64,000 nt of DNA, from contig JASFYN010000002.1 of the NCBI GenBank assembly GCA_030055615.1, forward strand, positions 62,001 to 126,000. The letters are read 5' to 3'. Position 1 is the stretch's first letter, and every line of letters starts with the position of its first letter. The position numbers and the translations under genes were made by a program. This stretch comes from Methanothermobacter sp. GTDB lineage: Archaea > Methanobacteriota > Methanobacteria > Methanobacteriales > DSM-23052. Positions 40,701 to 51,048 of this stretch are shown here, one piece after another. Below the pieces are notes generated by a model. It did no database searches and was not told the origin of the DNA. It saw nothing but the letters and a program-made list of their open reading frames with translations.

Positions 40701-41717
40701 TTGAAGGCCCTTAGGGTTCCTAAAAGGCATGCAAATATCATAATAAAAAGACTTATCAAGGATTCTATTATAGATCCTAATTTTAAGATTAAAAGGGATG
40801 AAAAGTTCGTTTTCATACCATTAAAGGAGCCTATAGATCCTAAAATAATACATGAAAGCGCTTCAATCATTGAAACGAAATTCAAAGAAAAGAAGAAGCG
40901 TCCAAGAGACTTTAAAGAAATTTTAAAAGATAAAATAGAAGATAAACTCCTTGCGGATATAAGAAGATCCTTCGATATTATAGGTGACATCGTAATTTTG
41001 GAAATCCCAGAAAAACTAGAAGAATATAAACATTTGATAGGGGAGGCTGCTTTAAAATTCACGAAAAAACGCGGAGTATTCAGGAAAAAAAGCAAAGTTA
41101 AAGGCATCGAACGTATAAGGGAGTTCGAACATCTTGCAGGTGAAAATTCAACTGAAACAATCCATGTGGAATATTCCACAAGGATAAAACTAGACATAAA
41201 AAAAGTCTACTTTAACCCTAGGCTCGCGAATGAAAGAGAAAGAATCGCAAGACAAGTAAAAAAAGGAGAAACAGTACTTGACATGTTTGCGGGTGTCGGA
41301 CCATTTTCCTTGGCCATCGCAAGACACAAAAAAGCCTCCAAAATCTATGCTGTTGATATCAATCCAACAGCAATAGAATACCTAAAAGAGAATATCAGAT
41401 TAAATAAGGCCCATGAAATCATACCATGTCATGGTGATATAAGAAAAGTTGCAGAGAAAATCCCCGAGAAAGTTGACAGGATCATAATGAATCTCCCAGC
41501 AAGTGCAAGGGAATTCCTAGACCTAGCATTAAAACTGATAAAAGATGGTGGAATAATACACTACTATGAATTTGCAAGGGACTTCGAAACCCCAATAAAA
41601 CATCTATTAGAAGCTGCGCAGCCATTTAAAGTGAAAATACTTCACAAAAGGATGGTCAAATCGAAGAGTCCAGGGGTTTGGCAGATTGCAATCGATGCAA
41701 AAATTCAGAAAACCTAG
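40701..41717 (+). CDS. trm5: tRNA (guanine37-N1)-methyltransferase Trm5
   Basis: Makes m1G37 next to the anticodon, preventing frameshifts. 338 residues. N-terminal D1/D2 domains ([19 protein letters not shown]) precede the Rossmann domain with motif [32 protein letters not shown], and the [14 protein letters not shown] catalytic motif. TTG 40701 has a strong GGGGAGGT 7 nt upstream; TTG 40683 lies before that site and is rejected. It overlaps mtnA tail to tail by 4 nt. Confidence 0.93.
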
Positions 41718-42643
41718 AGAGGGTCTATTATACCATCCTCAGTGATTATAGCAGTTATAAGATCAGATGGTACAATATCAAATGCAGGGTTAAAAACCTC
41801 AGTATCTTTTGGAGCTATCCTACAACCCCCATAATATAATACCTCATCAGAGCCTCTCTCCTCAATAATAGTATCATATATACTATTCTCTTCATCAAAG
41901 GTACTCATAGGGGCTGCCACATAAAATGGCACTTTAAACCTCTTAGCAGCTAATGCAACCATCAATGAGCCTATTTTATTAACAACACCGCCCCTAGCAA
42001 TCCTATCAGCTCCAATAATCACCTTATCGATTTTTTCTTGTTGCATAAGGTAACCTGCGGCACTATCCACTATAAGCTTTACAGGTATGTTCTCCATTTG
42101 AAGCTCCCATACACTTAAGCGGGCCCCCTGGCCCAACGGCCTTGTCTCATTACAGAATACCTTCACACGTTTACCTTTATTATGAGCTGCCCTTATAACT
42201 CCAAGGGCTGTTCCATAATCTACGCATGCAAGGGCTCCGGCGTTGCAATGTGTGAGAATAGTATCTCCATCATTGATTAGAGCAGCCCCATGTTCCCCAA
42301 TGGCCCTTGTAGTCTCCATATCTTCCTTGTATATTCTGAGGGCTTCCTTTAATGGAGAATCAGAAGATAATGTTCTTTTAACTGCCCATTGGAGGTTTAT
42401 TGCTGTTGGTCGCGAATTTTTAATCTCTTGGGCGGCTTTTTCAAGGTCTTCATTGGCGAGATCTGCTAGTGCGACTGCGAAGGCTGCTGCCACTCCTATG
42501 GCTGGGGCTCCTCTAACCACCATATTTTTTATGGCAAATATAACATCCTCGTAACTTTTACATTCGAAATATTCAAGTTTATCTGGTAATTTGCGTTGAT
42601 CTATTAGTAGTAGGCGATTTTTTTCCCATTTAATGGTCTTCAA
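41714..42643 (-). CDS. mtnA: S-methyl-5-thioribose-1-phosphate isomerase (aIF2B-like)
   Basis: Aldose-ketose isomerase of methylthioribose/thio-adenosine salvage, 309 residues. Motifs: MVVRGAPAIGVAAAF near the N-terminus, the catalytic cysteine in THCNAGALACVDYG, the acidic residue in VIIGADRIARGGVVNKIG and C-terminal VFNPAFDIVPSDLI. Archaeal members can also act on 5-deoxyribose or ribose 1,5-bisphosphate, so the exact substrate is less certain. TTG start with GGTGAT 5 nt upstream. Last gene of the mmp operon, 15 nt after nifB. Confidence 0.9.
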   Translation of the reverse strand: MKTIKWEKNRLLLIDQRKLPDKLEYFECKSYEDVIFAIKNMVVRGAPAIGVAAAFAVALADLANEDLEKAAQEIKNSRPTAINLQWAVKRTLSSDSPLKEALRIYKEDMETTRAIGEHGAALINDGDTILTHCNAGALACVDYGTALGVIRAAHNKGKRVKVFCNETRPLGQGARLSVWELQMENIPVKLIVDSAAGYLMQQEKIDKVIIGADRIARGGVVNKIGSLMVALAAKRFKVPFYVAAPMSTFDEENSIYDTIIEERGSDEVLYYGGCRIAPKDTEVFNPAFDIVPSDLITAIITEDGIIDPL

Positions 42644-42658
42644 TGGGGATCACCAATA

Positions 42659-43519
42659 TTAATAATGACTTGCTGGTGTGATGTCTAAGTGTTTGTCTTT
42701 TTTGCCTGGTATACCATAGGCGTCTGCACGGCATTGCATACAAGCTCTGAATACTGGTATTATCTTTTCCACTTCGGCTCTTGCTTTTTCTATCTGTGCA
42801 CATGTTGGCCTGGGATAGTCTTTCATCTCAGCTAGGGGTATTAACGGTATTATATTCATTAGGGATGCTCCCCTCTTTTTAACTTCTCGGGCTATATCGG
42901 TGATGTGTTTGTCATTTAATCCTGGTATGAGTACGGTGTTAACTTTGACTATGATACCGTTTTTGGCTGCTTTTTCTATGCCCTCGAGTTGGTTTTTGGA
43001 AAGTATCTTGAAGGCTTCTTTTCCCCTGTAAACTTTCCCATTGTATATGACATGTGAGTATATTTTCTCGCCTATTTCTGGGTCTATTGCATTTACTGTG
43101 ACTGTTATTGTTTTTACGCCGAGTTTGGCTAATTCATCTGCCTTTTCGGGGAGTAAGAGGCCATTGGTGCTCATACACTTTATAAGATCTGGGAATTTCT
43201 CATTGGCCCGTTTAAAAAATTCGAATGTTTCTTCATTGGCTAGAGCGTCACCTGGACCTGCGACGCCTATTACAGATATTGGCATCTCCTTTGTAACTTT
43301 TTCAACATGCTTTATGGCGTCGTCCACGCTCATAACCCTTGATGTTACTCCTGGGCGCATTTCACATTCGCTTATTTCTCTGGTGCAAAATTTGCAATGT
43401 ATATTACATTTTGGGGCGATGGGTAGGTGTATTCTGCCTACTTTGTCGTGGATTTTCTCATTGAAACATGGGTGAGCCTTTGTTATGTGGGCGAATCTTG
43501 TCTGGCGTGGTATTACCAT
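42659..43519 (-). CDS. nifB: NifB, radical SAM FeMo-cofactor core (NifB-co/L-cluster) synthase
   Basis: Fuses two [4Fe-4S] clusters with a carbide to give the [8Fe-9S-C] core. 286 residues: the short archaeal form without a NifX domain. Radical SAM motif CNIHCKFC (CxxxCxxC) follows AHPCFNEKIHDKVGRIHLP; SAM-binding VIGVAGPGDALANEETFEF; and C-terminal cluster ligands in FRACMQCRADAYG. Its ATG overlaps the mmp17 stop by 7 nt. No nifHDK genes are in the window; instead it is embedded in an operon of methanogenesis marker genes, suggesting that its product serves MCR activation. Confidence 0.95.
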   Translation of the reverse strand: MVIPRQTRFAHITKAHPCFNEKIHDKVGRIHLPIAPKCNIHCKFCTREISECEMRPGVTSRVMSVDDAIKHVEKVTKEMPISVIGVAGPGDALANEETFEFFKRANEKFPDLIKCMSTNGLLLPEKADELAKLGVKTITVTVNAIDPEIGEKIYSHVIYNGKVYRGKEAFKILSKNQLEGIEKAAKNGIIVKVNTVLIPGLNDKHITDIAREVKKRGASLMNIIPLIPLAEMKDYPRPTCAQIEKARAEVEKIIPVFRACMQCRADAYGIPGKKDKHLDITPASHY

Positions 43520-44079
43520 CTTTTTTCAACTCCCATTTTTTCGATAATGCCATATGCTTTTTTTATCCATTCTTCTTGGAGTATTTCGTCAGTGCATACC
43601 ATTGCTATTATATTGTCACTGGAGATGTCTCTTATAACGCGGAATCCTTCTGGTATTATCCTGAATATTGCATCATATATTTTCTTTTTGAGGGTCTCTT
43701 GGGGGTCGTGGACGGTTAAGCCTTCTAGTTTGACGGTGGGGTTTTCGATTATTATTTCGAATCTTGTTGGTTGTTGTATTTTTTCTCTTCCTTCTAGTTT
43801 CCAGAGCTTTTCAAGTAACTGGGGGAGGTATGTTTCATCTGTTATGCGTAGGTGGAGTTTGTTTTCTTCTTTGTCATATTCTGGTATTGCCATGTCCTCT
43901 AGATGGACTGGGGATGCTGCCTTGGCGAATTTGACCACTATTATAAATACTGGTTCTCTGGGGTCTGCGAATATCTGTAAGTCTTCTATTGCCCGTCCGA
44001 GTTGCAAGTCCTGGAGTACTTGTTTTACTACTAGTTCATATGCTTCGGCTCCTTCACGATCATAGCATTCTACTTTCAT
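43513..44079 (-). CDS. mmp17: Methanogenesis marker protein 17
   Basis: 188-residue protein of the Mmp17 family, found only in methane-metabolising archaea. Conserved segments: ECYDREGAEAYELVVKQVLQ, QIFADPREPVFIIVVKFA, and the C-terminal MVCTDEILQEEWIKKAYGII. No enzyme motif is visible. It has been associated with the ATP-dependent MCR activation complex (recollection, to be verified). It starts 9 nt after mmp15 and overlaps nifB by 7 nt. Confidence 0.9.
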   Translation of the reverse strand: MKVECYDREGAEAYELVVKQVLQDLQLGRAIEDLQIFADPREPVFIIVVKFAKAASPVHLEDMAIPEYDKEENKLHLRITDETYLPQLLEKLWKLEGREKIQQPTRFEIIIENPTVKLEGLTVHDPQETLKKKIYDAIFRIIPEGFRVIRDISSDNIIAMVCTDEILQEEWIKKAYGIIEKMGVEKRW

Positions 44080-44088
44080 CTTTTTCCC

Positions 44089-45321
44089 CTATTCTGTTTT
44101 TGCCATGCCTGATACAAGTAGAGCGGCTCCAACCGCCCCTATGTATTGGGAGTTTTCTGGTACTATTATGTCTATGCCTCCTAGGATGTCGCTCATGGCT
44201 TCTACTAGTCCTTCGATGAGTGATGTTCCACCTACTTGTATTACTGGTTCTCTCACGTCGATTTCTTGGAGTTGTTGTTCATAGACTTGTTCTGCTACTG
44301 AGTGACATGCTGCTGCTGCCACGTCTTCGCGGCTGCTTCCTGCTGCCAGTGCTGTTACGAGGTCTTGGATTCCGAATACTATGCAGTAACTGTCTAAGGG
44401 TGCTTTGTGGTAGTCTCCTTGGACAGCAAGTGAGCCTAGTTCGGTTATGTCCACTCCTAGTCTGCGTGCTGTTATTTCAAGGAATCTTCCTGAAGCTCCT
44501 GCGCAGATTCCGCCCATTGTAAAGTTGTCTGGTATGCTGTCATGTACCGTTATAACCTTATTGTCCATTCCTCCTATGTCTATGACTGTTGCTTCGCCTT
44601 TTTGGTGGTTTGCTAGGAATACTGCGCCTTTGGAGTTCACACTTAACTCTTCTTGTATTAGGTCCGCGTTGAAGTGTCTTCCTATGGTGAGTCTACCGTA
44701 TCCTGTGACTCCTATTCCTTCTATGTCTCCTAGTTTGTAGTCTGTTTCCTTGAAGGCTTCTTTCATTCCTTCTTCCGCAGAGCTTATAACGTCTGTTGTG
44801 GGTATCCATCCTGTTCCTATGATTTCATTGTTTTCCATGAGCACTACCTTGGTTGTTGTTGAACCTGAGTCTATCCCTAGTGTGAGGCCTTCTTGTTTTT
44901 CCCTTGCTAATATGCTTTTTCTCGATACTATGGTTGAAAGTGCTTCCATTCTAATGAATAGTTCATCCGCTTTGGTTCTTTCTGTGAATGAGTAGGTTAC
45001 AACTGGTAATCTTGTGTTTTGTTGGATGAATCTTCTTATCTCGTTTCTTACAAGGGCTCCTTCAGCGCATCTGAAACAAGTTGCTATGAATACTGCGTCA
45101 GCGTCTGTTCTTCCTTCCACGACTGACATTGCCCTTGCTATCATGAGTTTTATACCTGAACTTGCACATTCAAAGCCGAATTTTTCATATGCTTCCTCTA
45201 TATAGTCCAAGTCAGTTTCTGGGATGACTATCTCGGCTCCAAAGGTCTCAGCCGCCCTCTCTATCTCCTTTTGAACGCCACTGTATTCTGTACCACATGA
45301 TATTTGGGCTATTTTAACCAT
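44089..45321 (-). CDS. mmp15: Methanogenesis marker protein 15 (BcrD/HgdC-like ATPase)
   Basis: 410 residues. An N-terminal region with [16 protein letters not shown] is followed by an ASKHA ATPase domain of the 2-hydroxyacyl-CoA dehydratase activator type: [16 protein letters not shown] (phosphate 1), [11 protein letters not shown], and the two bridging-cluster cysteines in [13 protein letters not shown] and [13 protein letters not shown] 4Fe-4S cluster at a dimer interface and ATP-driven low-potential electron transfer follow by analogy. ATG 45321 has GGAGGC upstream and lies 1 nt after mmp5; ATG 45339 is rejected. Confidence 0.93.
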
Positions 45322-45322
45322 T

Positions 45323-45760
45323 TTAAGCCTCCAATTCATCTAAGAACGTGTTTATCTTATTAACTACTTCTATTGTCTCTTCTCGAGTCCTCGGATATTT
45401 TAATTCCAGTATGGGTATCTTTTTTTGTCTTAGGTAGTATACGCATAGTTCATTCGTCCTTGAACATCCCATGCAACCGAAACCAAATGGAGCGTCCTCC
45501 ATGATTATGGCAGCATCAGCTTTTTCGATTAGGGGACCGAATATTGACATGCGCCCTCTCACACCTGAAGGGACTTCTATAGCTGCATATTTAAGCCCTT
45601 TTAGGGGGTCTTCTTGTGTTATGTTGAATGGTGGTGAATCGATCTCAGGATCTGTTACCTTCTTTCTTATCTCTTTTTGCAATATTAGGGGCTCGTGGCC
45701 TTTTCTCTCCACGAGATCTGCTAGTATAAGGGAGTTTGGTGGGAATATCGCCACTTTCAA
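45323..45760 (-). CDS. mmp5: Methanogenesis marker protein 5
   Basis: 145 residues. Rossmann-like N-terminus [18 protein letters not shown]; a Cys-rich stretch [20 protein letters not shown] that probably binds an Fe-S cluster; C-terminal [20 protein letters not shown]. It resembles a half of the BcrC/HgdB-type dehydratase subunits that Mmp15-like ATPases activate. In the operon it precedes mmp15 with 1 nt between. Confidence 0.9.
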
Positions 45761-45763
45761 TGT

Positions 45764-46135
45764 TTAATCCTCCTTTCTCGTGTTTGTGGGTGTTGGTCTT
45801 CTTGAAATTTCCCTAATGTCAGTGAATATGCCTTTTGTTATGTCCACGATACCTATTGCCCCTATAACTTCCCCTTTATCTTTTAGTGGGACTACAATGA
45901 CGGGCGTGCCCTTATATGGTCCCGTTTCTGGGATTTCCCTTGCTGTTTTCCCTGTTTTCAAGACCTTTTCAAGTACTGGTCCTGTGTAATTGTAATCTAA
46001 TATTTTACCCTCTTCTATTCTGAGACCTTTTTTTTCTCTGCTTCTTATTGTGAGGGGTAGGCGCCCTACGAGTTCATGTATGCAAGTTGCGAGTTCTTTG
46101 AGTTCTTTCCCGGTTGATGATGGGGTTATCTCCAT
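45764..46135 (-). CDS. DUF2111 protein
   Basis: 123 residues. The IHELVGRLPLTIRSREKKGL and GKTAREIPETGPYKGTPVIV segments and IGAIGIVDITKGIFTDIREI match the small methanogen DUF2111 family, which has a PAS/GAF-like look (inference). Ligand unknown. It lies between mmp6 (1 nt) and mmp5 (3 nt), so it belongs to the operon. Confidence 0.85.
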   Translation of the reverse strand: MEITPSSTGKELKELATCIHELVGRLPLTIRSREKKGLRIEEGKILDYNYTGPVLEKVLKTGKTAREIPETGPYKGTPVIVVPLKDKGEVIGAIGIVDITKGIFTDIREISRRPTPTNTRKED

Positions 46136-46136
46136 T

Positions 46137-46571
46137 TTAAACCCTCTTTATCATATTCTTGGCTATCTTCTTGAAGGTGTTGATGTCTATTCTTTTTTTC
46201 TCATGGATGCTTACCTTTTGTGGCCTGGAGAGGGCTTCGCTCACATATCCTAATAGTTTGAATTCTTTTTCGAGTTGGTGGAAGCCTTCTCTTGCACCAC
46301 CTCTATGTGCCCTGCACCTTCTGGGGTCTCCTGGTGGGAATCCCCTTTCTTTTAAGAATATGTTGTTTGGGTCAAATTCCCTTATCTCTTTGGCAGCTCT
46401 TTCTACAAGTTCTTTTTCTCCGTGGATTAGCGCACCATAGCATGTAGATTTTATTGTGAGGGGTAAGCCCATCATATGTATCTTGTGGACGAGCTCGGCC
46501 GGGCTTAAATTCGCATTCGGCCCTAGTATTATCATCCTCGTGGATTCATCTTGGCTTTTTTTCTCTAACAT
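46137..46571 (-). CDS. mmp6: Methanogenesis marker protein 6
   Basis: 144 residues. Core motif [20 protein letters not shown] with a Cys in [20 protein letters not shown], and a conserved [21 protein letters not shown] 46571 has GGAG 8 nt upstream within the end of mmp3, giving a 26 nt overlap; ATG 46604 is less likely. Function unknown. Confidence 0.88.
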
Positions 46572-48090
46572 AGACTGTGTCTCCTTCTTTGAATTTTTCA
46601 ACATTTTCTAAGCCCTTTGTTATCTTCCCTATTATGTTTGTGGCGTTGAATGGTTCGCCTGTTGGGCCGAATTCGTCGTTGTCTTCGAGTCTTACTCCTA
46701 TTAGGCCGACGTGGTGGCGTGACATGTTAGTTATTCCTACTTCTCCTGCTTTGACGCATTTTGTTGGTGTGTTTTCTGGTACTATGCCTTTGGCTTCGCT
46801 TTTGTCGCCTTTGAACATTACTACTTTCATGCCTGGGAATGCAAAGTGGACTTCCATTGATCCTATTGGCGAGTCTATGAGTCCTGAGATTTTTTTGAAG
46901 TACCATGTTGAGCGTGGTGCTTTTTCATCCATTTCTATTTCTAGTAGTTTCTCTTCTTCGACTCCGAAAGTTTTAACTTTCTTCTCTTTTAGGATGTCCA
47001 TTGTATATTTGGGGTCTTGTTTTACTATGATAGCATTGTCGTCTTCGAGGCCCTCTCTTATCTGTTCTATGCCATGTTCTTCCAAGTATTTTTCTGCTTC
47101 TTTTTGTGTCATGTTAACTGTCATTATGCGGCCTGGTTCGCATTTTATTGTTATGTGGTCTCCTTGTCTTGCTATGTCTACTAGTTCCATCCCTTCTTGG
47201 ACTGTTCCTATTAGGTTGTGTGATGGTGTTGAAACCCTGTCTTCTCGGTAGATGTATACGCGTCCAGCTCCTCGGCCCCTGTTCCTGAGGGTTACGGTCC
47301 CCCTTTTCCTCTGTTCTATGCGCTCCACTCCCTTCTTGATCCCCTCTAATGCGTAGAATCCTATGAATGAATTTGATTCGTAGTCTACTTTGACTTTACC
47401 ATCCTCTATTAATGAAAAGAAGTGTTCGACCGATTCTGGGGAATCTCCGGTGGGTTTTATTTTGACGTAAGTGAATACTTGGTTTCCGTCTTCTAGTATG
47501 GTGTCAAGGTCTGTTACGGCCGCGCTTTTCACTATGCTTCTGCGTTCTATTACTGGTTCGACTTCTTTGATGTAGTCGTCTTCTGTGAGTAGGAGTAGTG
47601 TTCTTCTGCCTCCTGTTATCTTTGCGAAGACTCCTCTGTTGTATGGTGGGGCTCCGTATATGCTTGAGTGTTCATCTTTGCTGAATATTACGTGTGTGGA
47701 TTCTGGGCTGAAACCTGAAAGGCTTAATATTACCTCGTTTTTATTGTATTGGTGTTCTTGGTGTGTGGGTTCTAGGTCTGTTTTGATGGGGCCTATGGCT
47801 ACTTCGTCTGGTGTTGTCCATCTTATCCTTTGGCCTTTGAATTTTTTGTAATTTTCTCTCCAGGCTTTTGTGAGTGGGTTGATATTTTTATCTTCTAGTA
47901 TTTCGATTATGATGCTTCCTGCTGTTGTTTTGATCTTGTATTTGTTGATGTGTTTTTCGAATTCTTCTTTTCCTTTTATGACGCTTATGACCGAACCTTT
48001 TATGTAGGGGGCCTTTGTGGCTTTTATGGCATCTTTTACTGTGGAGCCTTTTGGTAGTTCGATTTCTTGGCCATTGATTTTAATTAGCAA
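46546..48090 (-). CDS. mmp3: Methanogenesis marker protein 3
   Basis: 514 residues. The N-terminus is a ubiquitin-like/MoaD-like small domain ([20 protein letters not shown]), followed by large beta-rich repeats with [40 protein letters not shown] and C-terminal [20 protein letters not shown]. Some of it has been compared with cyclophilin-like domains. I recall Mmp3 as a component of the MCR activation complex. TTG start with GGGGGA upstream. Confidence 0.92.
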
Positions 48091-48103
48091 TTATTTTCCC
48101 CCA

Positions 48104-49093
48104 TTATTTTTGGGTTTTTTCTTGTATGCCCATTATTAGGTCTTTTTCAAAATCAAATAGTGTCTTTTTTTCATCTTCTAGGGTGATGTAGAGTTTTTTT
48201 TCGTTTATTATCTCCCCTGCGACGGTTGAGGTTATGTTAACGGATTCTAATAGGTTTATACATTCTTTTGTGTTTTCTGGTTTTGTTGTGAGGACGAAAC
48301 CGGCGCCTGGGTATAATCGCAGCCAATCTTCCCATTTTATGCCTTTCTTTTTGGGGATTTTTTCTAATTCGACGGTTGCACCAACATTTGATGCTTCTAG
48401 GAGCATTCCAAGGGTTCCTAGGGTTCCCGGGTTGCTTATGTCCTTGCCGGCTGTTAATAGTTTTTTTGATGCGATTTCTTCCATTATTTTTATCTGGGCT
48501 CTTACAAGTTCGGGTTTCTTGTGGCTTGTGGTGTCCCAGTTGAGTGGGAAAGTTGGGTGTTGTCTGCCATCTAGGTCTATGCCTATTATTATTTTATCTC
48601 CTGGTTTTGCATTACAGCTTGTTATGATGGTATCTTCAGAAACTAGGCCAGTTATTGAAACGTCCAGAGCGTTGTAGGGTGTGTCTGGATGTACGTGGCC
48701 ACCTACCATGGGTACTCCAAATTTTTCCACACCGTCTCTTATGCCTTCCATGACTTTCCTACAAGTTTCTTTGTCCTTTACTGAGAGTACGTTAACCATT
48801 CCGATGGGGGTGCCTCCCATGGCTGCGATGTCATTAACGTTGACTAGTACTGAGCAGTATCCTGCCCAGTATGGGTCTGCCTCCATTAGCCTCCCCCATA
48901 TGCCATCAGCGGCTATTAGGAGTAGTTTACCGTCTCCGAGGCGTATTGCAGATGCGTCATCTCCAAAACTAATATATGTTTTACCCGATACTTTGTCAAC
49001 GTCATTGAGTAGGGATACGACCTCTTTTATGGGTTTTTTACGTGTTATCCCTTCATAGTTTTTCACAGATTTTATAATTGAGTCTAGGTCCAA
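48104..49093 (-). CDS. mmp2: Methanogenesis marker protein 2 (PurM/ThiL-like ATPase)
   Basis: 329 residues of the PurM-fold superfamily (AIR synthase/thiamine-monophosphate kinase relatives). Features: [58 protein letters not shown] and [14 protein letters not shown]. Substrate unknown. TTG start with GAGGTG upstream. It is located between DUF2117 (20 nt) and mmp3 (13 nt). Confidence 0.9.
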
Positions 49094-49113
49094 TTGCCCA
49101 CCTCAAAACTTGC

Positions 49114-50232
49114 TTATTTTATTTCTTTTATAAGGTAATCCACACCCATATTATTTATAATTTTTAATATCTTCTTTTTAAGATTTTCTATATCCTCTAT
49201 TTCAATTGTATACTTTCCTTTAAAGATTTCATTGAAAATCTTGCGGCCTATTATATCATCTAATCCTTTTTCGAATTCTATTATCATTGACCCTTTTGTT
49301 TTGAAGCCCTTCTCTACTACTTTGTCAATGTCCCCATCTGTGATCCCAATGATGGGAACGTCAAACCTGTAGAGTATGTCGGCGGCCACTAGGCTTGTGT
49401 CATCCCCTACTGTCACGACCAGGTCTGAATCTTTTAGGGTGTATATGTCTTCTGCCGCATGATCTAGGAATGCTACTTTAAATTTCTTTTTGGGTTTTCT
49501 TGTTTTTACCTTCCTTGGTTTGATATTATTAGATCTTCTGAGGAGTCCTGTTTTGACTATTGCTTCTTCCAAGTTTACTGGTCCAAGTTTTTCGATTCCA
49601 TGTTTTTTTAGCTTGCCGCCTATGATCTTTTTTATTATTCCATCCTCTGCGACTAGTATGACATTTTCTGATGTTGCTTTGCCAATAACGATACCATTTA
49701 CGAAAATGTTTTCATCCTTGGATACTCCTACTAGTCTCCTGTATATTCGCTTATCAGAGACTTTCTCATAATTTCCTGGGGATATTTCTTTTATTATTTC
49801 TTCTGGTTTGACTATTTGGAGGCCTAGTTTGTCCGCGATTTCTTTTGCGAGTGGTTCCACTGCCTTGTGCCATGGGATTACTGTACCGTCTTTTTCACCG
49901 GGTCTTTCGATTTGTATGAGTTTTGGTTTTGTTTTTGTTTTCATGAAGACTTTGTAGCCGAATCCGTGGCCTGTGATTTTTGATTTCCCATAGTTGAGTA
50001 GGAAGATTATGTCGTGACCTTCTTTTGCGAGTTTGTCTATTGATTGGCTTGGGAGTCTTTTTTTGGAGATGTCTATTAGGTTTTCTAGGTGGGCGTCGTA
50101 TACTGCTGTTCTCCCCATTGTGCCCCCGAGTAGTGCTTTGACTTTACCATATTCTTCTAGGAATTTTATTATTTTGAGGGCGTATCCTGAGTCTACAATC
50201 TGTGGGCCATGGACTACTACTCCGATTTTCAT
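49114..50232 (-). CDS. DUF2117 protein
   Basis: 372 residues; methanogen DUF2117 family. N-terminus [20 protein letters not shown] resembles a Rossmann/ATP-nucleotide-binding strand; later [20 protein letters not shown] and a C-terminal half with [20 protein letters not shown]. No catalytic assignment. It starts 6 nt after nob1 and is followed by mmp2, which supports a role together with the marker proteins (inference). Confidence 0.85.
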
Positions 50233-50238
50233 GGTTTA

Positions 50239-50745
50239 TCATTTCCTTTTCTTTTTTATGATTTTGGAGCCGCAGATTTCGCATTGTCTGGAGGGGTGTT
50301 CTGGTGGGTATCTTTTTTTGCATCCTATACAGATTTTTTCCCATTGGTATATTTTATTTATGCCTTCTGTTATGACGCTTTTGAAGGGTACTTTTATTAT
50401 TTTCATGATGTTTTGGATGGAGTAGTCGTCTGTGATCATCATCACTTTTTCTCCTTGGTTTTTTAATTGTAGTGTTAATGCTATGATTTTTTTGTCAGTT
50501 TTTGACAATCTTAGGATGTCACCGGATTTTTCAGCGAGCTTCTCAGTTTTTTCGATGTATTCTCTTTTTGGGTTGATTATTTTAAGTTTGCCTTCTTCTA
50601 ACGATTTTTCGAGGGCTATCCTTGATTTTAGGTCTTTTAGTTCTTCTGTGACTTCGGGTGTTGTATAGTTTTTTTCATCTGATGGGGTGTATCCTCCTAT
50701 GAATGCAGAAGAATCTAATATTTTATGATATTTTTTTAGTTTCAT
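50239..50745 (-). CDS. nob1: Nob1-like endonuclease, PIN plus zinc ribbon
   Basis: Processes the 3' end of 16S rRNA precursor in archaea. 168 residues. PIN domain acidic residues in ILDSSAFIGGYTP, EVTEELKD and LSKTDKKIIALTL, MMITDDYSIQN; C-terminal zinc ribbon CIGCKKRYP ... CEICGSKII. It is the first gene of the mmp operon. Its promoter probably uses TTAATAAAAAAGG (minus strand, about 50814-50826). Confidence 0.93.
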   Translation of the reverse strand: MKLKKYHKILDSSAFIGGYTPSDEKNYTTPEVTEELKDLKSRIALEKSLEEGKLKIINPKREYIEKTEKLAEKSGDILRLSKTDKKIIALTLQLKNQGEKVMMITDDYSIQNIMKIIKVPFKSVITEGINKIYQWEKICIGCKKRYPPEHPSRQCEICGSKIIKKKRK

Positions 50746-50849: not shown

Positions 50850-50871
50850 CTTAAAAACATATACTTAGAAC

Positions 50872-50956
50872 GGGTAGGGGTTAGGACATTCAAACTTATT
50901 TTTGGTCGTCCGATTTGGAATCAAAGCCGCCTCCAATCCAAAGAAAAACCCTACCC
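50872..50956 (+). ncRNA. Candidate structured RNA between nob1 and moaB
   Basis: A perfect 8-bp GC-rich stem, GGGTAGGG (50872-50879) with CCCTACCC (50949-50956), closes an 85-nt element. Inside are two potential hairpins: GGAC/GTCC (50884-50887 with 50908-50911) extended by CAAA/TTTG, and TTGGA/TCCAA (50915-50919 with 50932-50936). It is GC-rich in an AT-rich 300 bp gap that holds no ORF. A TATA-like site lies at the right distance and a T6 run at about 50991. I recognise neither a tRNA, a C/D box nor a clear H/ACA pattern. Strand is inferred from the promoter. Confidence 0.5.
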
Positions 50957-51048
50957 CCACCATTTAAGGTAACTACAATATAATATCCTCTTTTTTGATA
51001 ATAAAAACCTTGATTATATCATCATAAAAAATAATAAAGGTTTTGAGT

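What the first reader, a model, noticed from the sequence alone, without database searches (positions are those of the whole stretch)
42659..50745. nifB sits inside a methyl-coenzyme M reductase (MCR) activation operon
nifB overlaps mmp17 by 7 nt and follows nob1-DUF2117-mmp2-mmp3-mmp6-DUF2111-mmp5-mmp15-mmp17 on one strand with gaps of 1-20 nt or overlaps. NifB is known to make the [8Fe-9S-C] precursor of the nitrogenase cofactor, and no nitrogenase gene is in the window. As I recall, structural work on the ATP-driven MCR activation complex found nitrogenase-type clusters together with marker proteins 3 and 17. The gene order supports NifB supplying those clusters. It also nominates the functionally unassigned operon members (DUF2117, DUF2111, mmp2, mmp5, mmp6, mmp15) as carriers, scaffolds or chaperones of that cluster.
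Basis: partly seen in the sequence, partly recalled or inferred. Interest (0 to 1): 0.72.

Follow-up and report, generated by a model that had tools for sequence, protein, structure and literature searches.

The report
NifB gene inside MCR-activation operon
In this methane-making archaeon without nitrogenase, the gene for the enzyme that builds nitrogenase-type iron-sulfur clusters sits in the operon for proteins that switch on the methane-forming enzyme; the arrangement is real and nearly universal in its relatives, but it and its likely meaning were already published in 2025.

Summary
Ten genes, nob1-DUF2117-mmp2-mmp3-mmp6-DUF2111-mmp5-mmp15-mmp17-nifB, run head to tail on the minus strand. 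An mtnA-like gene 15 nt after nifB was missed. In 105 of 105 Methanobacteriota genomes with both genes on one contig, nifB directly follows mmp17; 89 of these lack nifD. All 32 genomes of the Methanothermococcus phylum have nifB, but only 12 of 31 keep it within 2 kb of mmp17, there convergent. This genome has no nifD but has McrC and Mmp7 with all seven published cluster residues conserved. NifB is 82% identical to a crystallised NifB, every Cys kept. Best explanation: NifB makes [8Fe-9S-C] clusters for McrC/Mmp7. That idea, and the same gene order in M. marburgensis, are in print (PMC12176620).

Mmp15 is a dehydratase-type activase with both [4Fe-4S] cysteines and more likely injects electrons with ATP. 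No NifX/NafY carrier domain was found in the members scanned. Caveat: the genome also encodes an orphan NifE-like protein with conserved ligand candidates, a possible second NifB client.

The parts
50239..50745 (-). nob1-like rRNA-processing endonuclease gene, first gene of the run; probably unrelated to MCR
   Evidence: NF009145 222.8 bits, just under its cut-off of 223
49114..50232 (-). DUF2117 protein
   Evidence: PF09890 457.8 bits; keeps its place before mmp2 in L034, L036, L050, L052, L055
48104..49093 (-). mmp2, AIR-synthase/SelD/ThiL-like enzyme
   Evidence: TIGR03267 531.7 bits; PF00586 and PF02769
46546..48090 (-). mmp3, subunit of the MCR activation complex
   Evidence: TIGR03268 713.5 bits; phmmer E 3e-105 to chain J of 8s7v
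46137..46604 (-). mmp6 (DUF2102); true start probably downstream of 46604
   Evidence: TIGR03272 166.4 bits, match from residue 25
45764..46135 (-). DUF2111 protein
   Evidence: PF09884 125.9 bits
45323..45760 (-). mmp5 (DUF2112), invariant CxxC (C96, C99)
   Evidence: TIGR03271 253.2 bits; alignment of 11
44089..45339 (-). mmp15: N-terminal domain with invariant C15, C88, C91, and a C-terminal activase ATPase with [4Fe-4S] ligand candidates C279 and C319
   Evidence: TIGR03286 759 bits, TIGR00241 349.6 bits; aligned to 4eht/1hux; 20-sequence alignment; Foldseek
43513..44079 (-). mmp17, subunit of the MCR activation complex next to cluster FeSIII
   Evidence: TIGR03291 228 bits; phmmer E 2.1e-21 to chain G of 8s7v
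42659..43519 (-). nifB, short form, radical SAM synthase of the [8Fe-9S-C] cluster; overlaps mmp17 by 7 nt
   Evidence: TIGR01290 294.7 bits; 82% identical to 7bi7, all Cys kept
41714..42643 (-).
   Evidence: PF01008 287.2 bits; also follows nifB in L035, L050, L053

Best explanation
The operon encodes part of the machinery that reduces the nickel of F430 and so activates methyl-coenzyme M reductase. NifB, a radical SAM enzyme, fuses two [4Fe-4S] clusters around a carbide to give an [8Fe-9S-C] cluster, here not for nitrogenase, which the genome lacks, but for the three clusters held by McrC and Mmp7 along which electrons reach F430. Mmp3 and Mmp17 are subunits of that complex. Shown here: gene content, conserved linkage, absence of nifD, conserved ligands. 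Shown by others: the complex and its clusters in M. maripaludis. Inferred: that NifB is the source of those clusters, how they are delivered, and the roles of the remaining operon members, of which Mmp15 is most likely an ATP-driven [4Fe-4S] electron injector rather than a cluster carrier.
For: NifB 82% identical to crystallised NifB with all Cys kept. nifB directly after mmp17 in 105/105 testable Methanobacteriota genomes, 89 of them without nifD. nifB in 32/32 genomes of the Methanothermococcus phylum, within 2 kb of mmp17 in 12 of 31, in another orientation. All seven cluster-ligand residues conserved in this organism's McrC and Mmp7. Published: three [8Fe-9S-C]-like clusters in the complex, NifB proposed as source and described as essential in methanogens lacking nitrogenase (PMC12176620); a NifB homologue listed as a methanogen-specific gene in 2011 (PMC3087415). 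In three genomes with a methylthio-alkane-reductase-like cluster a second nifB accompanies it while the first stays with mmp17.
Against: No direct evidence that NifB feeds McrC/Mmp7; the carbide in those clusters is not proven spectroscopically. In most genomes of the Methanothermococcus phylum nifB is not next to mmp17. The operon contains genes with no expected MCR role (nob1, mtnA-like). This genome has another possible client, the orphan NifE-like protein.
Confidence: 0.82

Rival explanations
1. NifB in this genome mainly serves another nitrogenase-like protein, the orphan NifE-like protein beside leuA (G000:C1:75461-76660); its place among the mmp genes is historical.
For: The protein keeps three N-terminal Cys, a further Cys aligning with a NifE Cys, and a C-terminal His, invariant in 12 homologues, so it could bind an 8Fe cluster.
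Against: A close homologue is found in only 14 of 115 genomes, whereas nifB is in 112. It has no NifN, NifK or NifX neighbour.
Confidence: 0.06
2. The linkage is incidental: nifB sits in a conserved housekeeping gene string and has no functional tie to MCR activation.
For: nob1 and an mtnA-like gene share the string. Most genomes of the Methanothermococcus phylum have nifB elsewhere. Genomes of one class are not independent samples.
Against: The neighbourhood recurs as a convergent pair in 12 genomes of another phylum. nifB is kept in 91 nifD-less Methanobacteriota genomes. The cluster NifB makes has been modelled in the complex.
Confidence: 0.05
3. One reading: the other operon members (DUF2117, DUF2111, Mmp2, Mmp5, Mmp6, Mmp15) carry, scaffold or chaperone the NifB product.
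For: Conserved order with nifB. Mmp5 and the Mmp15 N-domain have invariant Cys that could hold a cluster. Some delivery factor must exist.
Against: Mmp15 is an activase with both [4Fe-4S] Cys. Mmp2 belongs to the AIRS enzymes. No NifX/NafY domain found. The order mmp7-17-15-5-6-3-atwA in Methanohalophilus lacks nifB in the listed run (PMC3226654).
Confidence: 0.15

Closest known systems
Methanothermobacter marburgensis mmp cluster MTBMA_c04360-c04410 followed by nifB (PMC12176620)
   Same: Mmp genes clustered and followed by nifB; in my survey all eight genomes of genus g18 (same order) have nifB directly after mmp17.
   Different: Seven of the eight g18 genomes have nifD while this genome has none; here the run also ends with an mtnA-like gene 15 nt after nifB.
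[quoted passage not shown]
   Same: Mmp3, Mmp17, Mmp7 and McrC all present with high similarity; all seven cluster-ligand residues conserved.
   Different: In M. maripaludis the mmp genes are dispersed; here most sit in one run with nifB. Mmp15, Mmp5, Mmp6, Mmp2, DUF2111 and DUF2117 were not reported in the purified complex.
NifB of PDB 7bi7/7jma/7jmb
   Same: 82% identity over the aligned length, all Cys conserved, same short form.
   Different: No nitrogenase in this genome to receive the product.
2-hydroxyacyl-CoA dehydratase activases (HgdC 1hux, HadI 4eht) and DCCP reductase (7yyl)
   Same: Mmp15 C-terminal domain: same ATPase fold, both cluster Cys kept, Foldseek E 2.7e-18.
   Different: Mmp15 has an extra N-terminal domain of about 150 aa with three invariant Cys; its electron acceptor is unknown.

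Membership tests
NifB (functional [8Fe-9S-C] synthase) | Radical SAM CxxxCxxC motif and all conserved Cys of solved NifB | tested here: met
   All nine Cys of 7bi7 conserved in the alignment, including CNIHCKFC
NifB (functional [8Fe-9S-C] synthase) | Score above the TIGR01290 curated cut-off | tested here: not met
   294.7 against 343.65 bits, for want of the C-terminal half of the profile; none of 115 Methanobacteriota genomes passes. The feature belongs to the long form, not to the catalytic domain.
NifB (functional [8Fe-9S-C] synthase) | Makes the cluster in vitro | not testable with these tools
   Needs biochemistry
L-cluster-dependent MCR activation system | McrC residues C12, H49, C55, H118 and Mmp7 residues H84, C90, C143 | tested here: met
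   All seven conserved in this genome's proteins; C90 is only a possible ligand in the paper
L-cluster-dependent MCR activation system | Mmp3 and Mmp17 encoded | tested here: met
L-cluster-dependent MCR activation system | A2 (AtwA) ATPase encoded | not tested
   No genome search spent on it
L-cluster-dependent MCR activation system | NifB needed for the clusters of the complex | not testable with these tools
   Needs depletion and spectroscopy
HgdC-type ATP-dependent [4Fe-4S] activase (Mmp15) | Actin-like/BadF ATPase fold | tested here: met
   PF01869 253.5 bits; ten activase chains are the top ten Foldseek matches, E 2.7e-18 to 4.8e-10, though the model is only moderately confident (pLDDT 71.2)
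HgdC-type ATP-dependent [4Fe-4S] activase (Mmp15) | Two Cys that hold the [4Fe-4S] cluster at the dimer interface | tested here: met
   C279 and C319 align with the Cys of 4eht and 1hux and are invariant in 20 homologues
HgdC-type ATP-dependent [4Fe-4S] activase (Mmp15) | Partner protein of the HgdB/DCCP type that receives the electron | tested here: inconclusive
   Mmp5: best Foldseek match is benzoyl-CoA reductase BzdNO at E 0.12, DCCP at 0.21; no sequence support
NifX/NafY-type carrier of NifB-co | NifX/NafY domain in an operon member | tested here: not met
   No such hit at E up to 0.1 in the ten proteins scanned, nob1 not among them

The most novel reading that the evidence does not exclude
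Mmp15 (perhaps with Mmp5) is the missing physiological electron source of MCR activation: a HgdC-like ATPase that fires low-potential electrons from its [4Fe-4S] cluster into the NifB-made cluster chain of Mmp7/McrC, so that activation uses two ATP machines, A2 to open the site and Mmp15 to drive the electron. It would explain why the purified complex works only with Ti(III) citrate and slowly.
Probability: 0.3. Interest if true: 0.8.

Novelty: already known. Interest (0 to 1): 0.4.

Why it matters
How the clusters of the MCR activation complex are made and delivered, and what the native electron donor is, are open questions. The conserved operon names the candidates, and Mmp15's activase features give one of them a testable chemical role. 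The data also fit the view that methanogens keep NifB for MCR and that nitrogenase shares that copy: the nifD-bearing Methanobacteriota have a single nifB, and wherever its place could be checked it is the mmp-linked one.

Tried and rejected
G094 (single contig, reported 99% complete) seemed to lack mmp15, mmp17 and nifB together, which would have been striking. The stretch after its mmp3 is masked (10,000 N), so the absence is an artefact. A NifB in an 'open frame of 1990 aa' in G086 is likewise due to N runs. The only genome-contig scan, with an Mmp3 alignment, gave 4 loci because of poor patterns, so Halobacteriota and other MCR lineages were not surveyed. Homology of Mmp5 with the Mmp15 N-domain, suggested by eye (CxxC and similar order of elements), was not supported by hhalign, and Mmp5 had no significant match to HgdB-type proteins. 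Viperin hits of NifB in PADLOC are superfamily-level only. A possible RNA hairpin upstream of nob1 matched no Rfam family and folds only a little better than shuffles. The sigma-70 promoter scan does not apply to archaea. One DNA alignment was uninformative.
Full report
WHAT IS THERE. All gaps are 1-20 nt or overlaps, and nifB overlaps mmp17 by 7 nt. The run does not stop at nifB: an IF-2B/MtnA-family gene follows after 15 nt (42643-41714). nob1 at the start and this gene at the end have no expected link to MCR, a warning against reading function from membership alone.

NIFB. The 286-aa protein is the short NifB form. It aligns with PDB 7bi7 NifB over nearly its full length, 234 of 285 residues identical, every Cys kept. 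It misses the TIGR01290 cut-off because it matches only profile positions 8-283 of 441; none of 115 Methanobacteriota genomes passes that cut-off.

THE REST OF THE GENOME. The genome (1.49 Mb, six contigs, reported 99.2% complete) has no nifD at E up to 1e-60. Two nitrogenase-superfamily genes exist. One is cfbD (TIGR03282, 557.7 bits); the other is an orphan NifE-like protein of 400 aa beside leuA. The orphan keeps three N-terminal Cys, a further Cys aligning with a NifE Cys, and a C-terminal His. It is the one local alternative client for NifB, but a close homologue occurs in only 14 of 115 genomes (two further hits there are ordinary NifD/E proteins). mcrC and mmp7 lie elsewhere in the genome (C1:249592 and C1:242162). 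Their products keep all seven residues that hold, or in one case may hold, the three clusters in the M. maripaludis structure: McrC C12, H49, C55, H118 and Mmp7 H84, C90, C143 (structure paper).

SURVEY. In 115 Methanobacteriota genomes mmp17 was found in 113 and nifB in 112. Of 111 with both, 105 have them on one contig, and in all 105 nifB is directly downstream on the same strand, gap between HMM hits at most 622 nt, median 117. nifD is found in 21 genomes only. Adjacency holds in 89 of 89 testable nifD-less and 16 of 16 testable nifD-bearing genomes. Each of the 21 nifD-bearing genomes has a single nifB, so in these the mmp-linked copy, where its place can be checked, also has to serve nitrogenase. 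In the phylum of Methanothermococcus nifB was found in 32 of 32 genomes. There nifB and mmp17 lie within 2 kb in 12 of 31 genomes, on opposite strands and convergent; in the rest they are farther apart or on different contigs. So presence is near-universal, operon membership is a feature of one class, and the neighbourhood recurs elsewhere in another arrangement. Counts within a class are not independent events. One apparent loss (G094) proved to be masked sequence.

NATURAL EXPERIMENT. In genus g12 four genomes carry a second nifB. In three of them it directly follows a nitrogenase-like cluster of two component-1 genes and one nifH-like gene. The best solved relative of the second component-1 protein is methylthio-alkane reductase (9d9u/9fmg, E 5e-83), while the first nifB stays behind mmp17. 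A nitrogenase-like enzyme here brings its own NifB rather than displacing the mmp-linked one.

HOW IT LIKELY WORKS. Shown by others: McrC, Mmp7, Mmp17, Mmp3 and A2 form a complex that activates MCR with ATP and Ti(III) citrate and holds three [8Fe-9S-C]-like clusters leading to F430 (PMC12176620). Inferred, and already proposed there: NifB makes these clusters. My data fit this at every point tested. The paper reports that the purified complex is slow and fails with DTT, and argues that further Mmp proteins are required. For one of these I can offer a specific role. Mmp15 carries a 2-hydroxyacyl-CoA-dehydratase-type activase domain (TIGR00241, 349.6 bits). It keeps both [4Fe-4S] cysteines in alignment with 4eht and 1hux, and they are invariant in 20 homologues. 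Its predicted fold has activase chains as the top ten PDB matches, though the model is only moderately confident. By analogy Mmp15 would inject low-potential electrons at the cost of ATP. Its partner is not identified: Mmp5 resembles HgdB/DCCP proteins only weakly. The paper's text does not mention Mmp15, and the papers I could search gave no such assignment, though most subscription papers are not held. Mmp15 has not been reported in McrC pull-downs, which fits a transient donor but is no support for one.

PRIOR KNOWLEDGE. A NifB homologue was listed among methanogen-specific genes in 2011 (PMC3087415). The string mmp7-17-15-5-6-3-atwA was listed for Methanohalophilus in 2011 (PMC3226654). 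The cluster 'followed by nifB' and the proposed role date from 2025 (PMC12176620). [quoted passage not shown]

The core interpretation is right but published. The extension to all other members as carriers or scaffolds is not supported: one is an activase, one an AIRS enzyme, and none scanned has a NifX/NafY domain. The recollection that the clusters go 'together with' Mmp3 and Mmp17 should read McrC and Mmp7.

VERDICT. A real, conserved arrangement whose existence in a related genus and whose meaning are in print. It is already known; interest is moderate, because the operon makes the cluster supply and the electron donor of MCR activation testable.

Noticed in passing
L037:9461-10663 (G000:C1:75461-76660, same genome, outside the window): Orphan NifE-like protein of 400 aa beside leuA in a genome without nifHDK, with conserved Cys11, Cys36, Cys94, Cys212 and a C-terminal His; found in all four genomes of the window's genus, all eight of g18, one of g17 and one of g19, 14 of 115 in all.
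   Followed up: partly
L051:2169-7177; also L106 and L108: Genus g12 genomes G083, G093 and G095 (probably Methanosphaera, my inference from genome size) carry a methylthio-alkane-reductase-like cluster (two component-1 genes and a nifH-like gene) with its own second nifB; in G083 it lies on the smaller, 106-kb contig.
   Followed up: partly
L050:8277-8768 and L053:3031-3525: A divergent second mmp5 copy (36-37% identical to the window's Mmp5) sits between mmp6 and mmp5 in some g12 genomes, where DUF2111 lies in the window.
   Followed up: no
L055:1-10000, L050:1-2500, L052:8002-13001: Long masked N runs in stored genomes next to this operon create false gene absences and spurious giant open frames in genome-wide searches.
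   Followed up: yes
window 50866-50968, minus strand: Intergenic inverted repeat (GGGGGTAGGGTT ... AACCCCTACCC) upstream of nob1; z-score -1.8, no Rfam match.
   Followed up: partly
L069, L072, L073, L075, L076, L078, L080: In part of the Methanothermococcus phylum nifB and mmp17 are close convergent neighbours rather than co-directional.
   Followed up: yes
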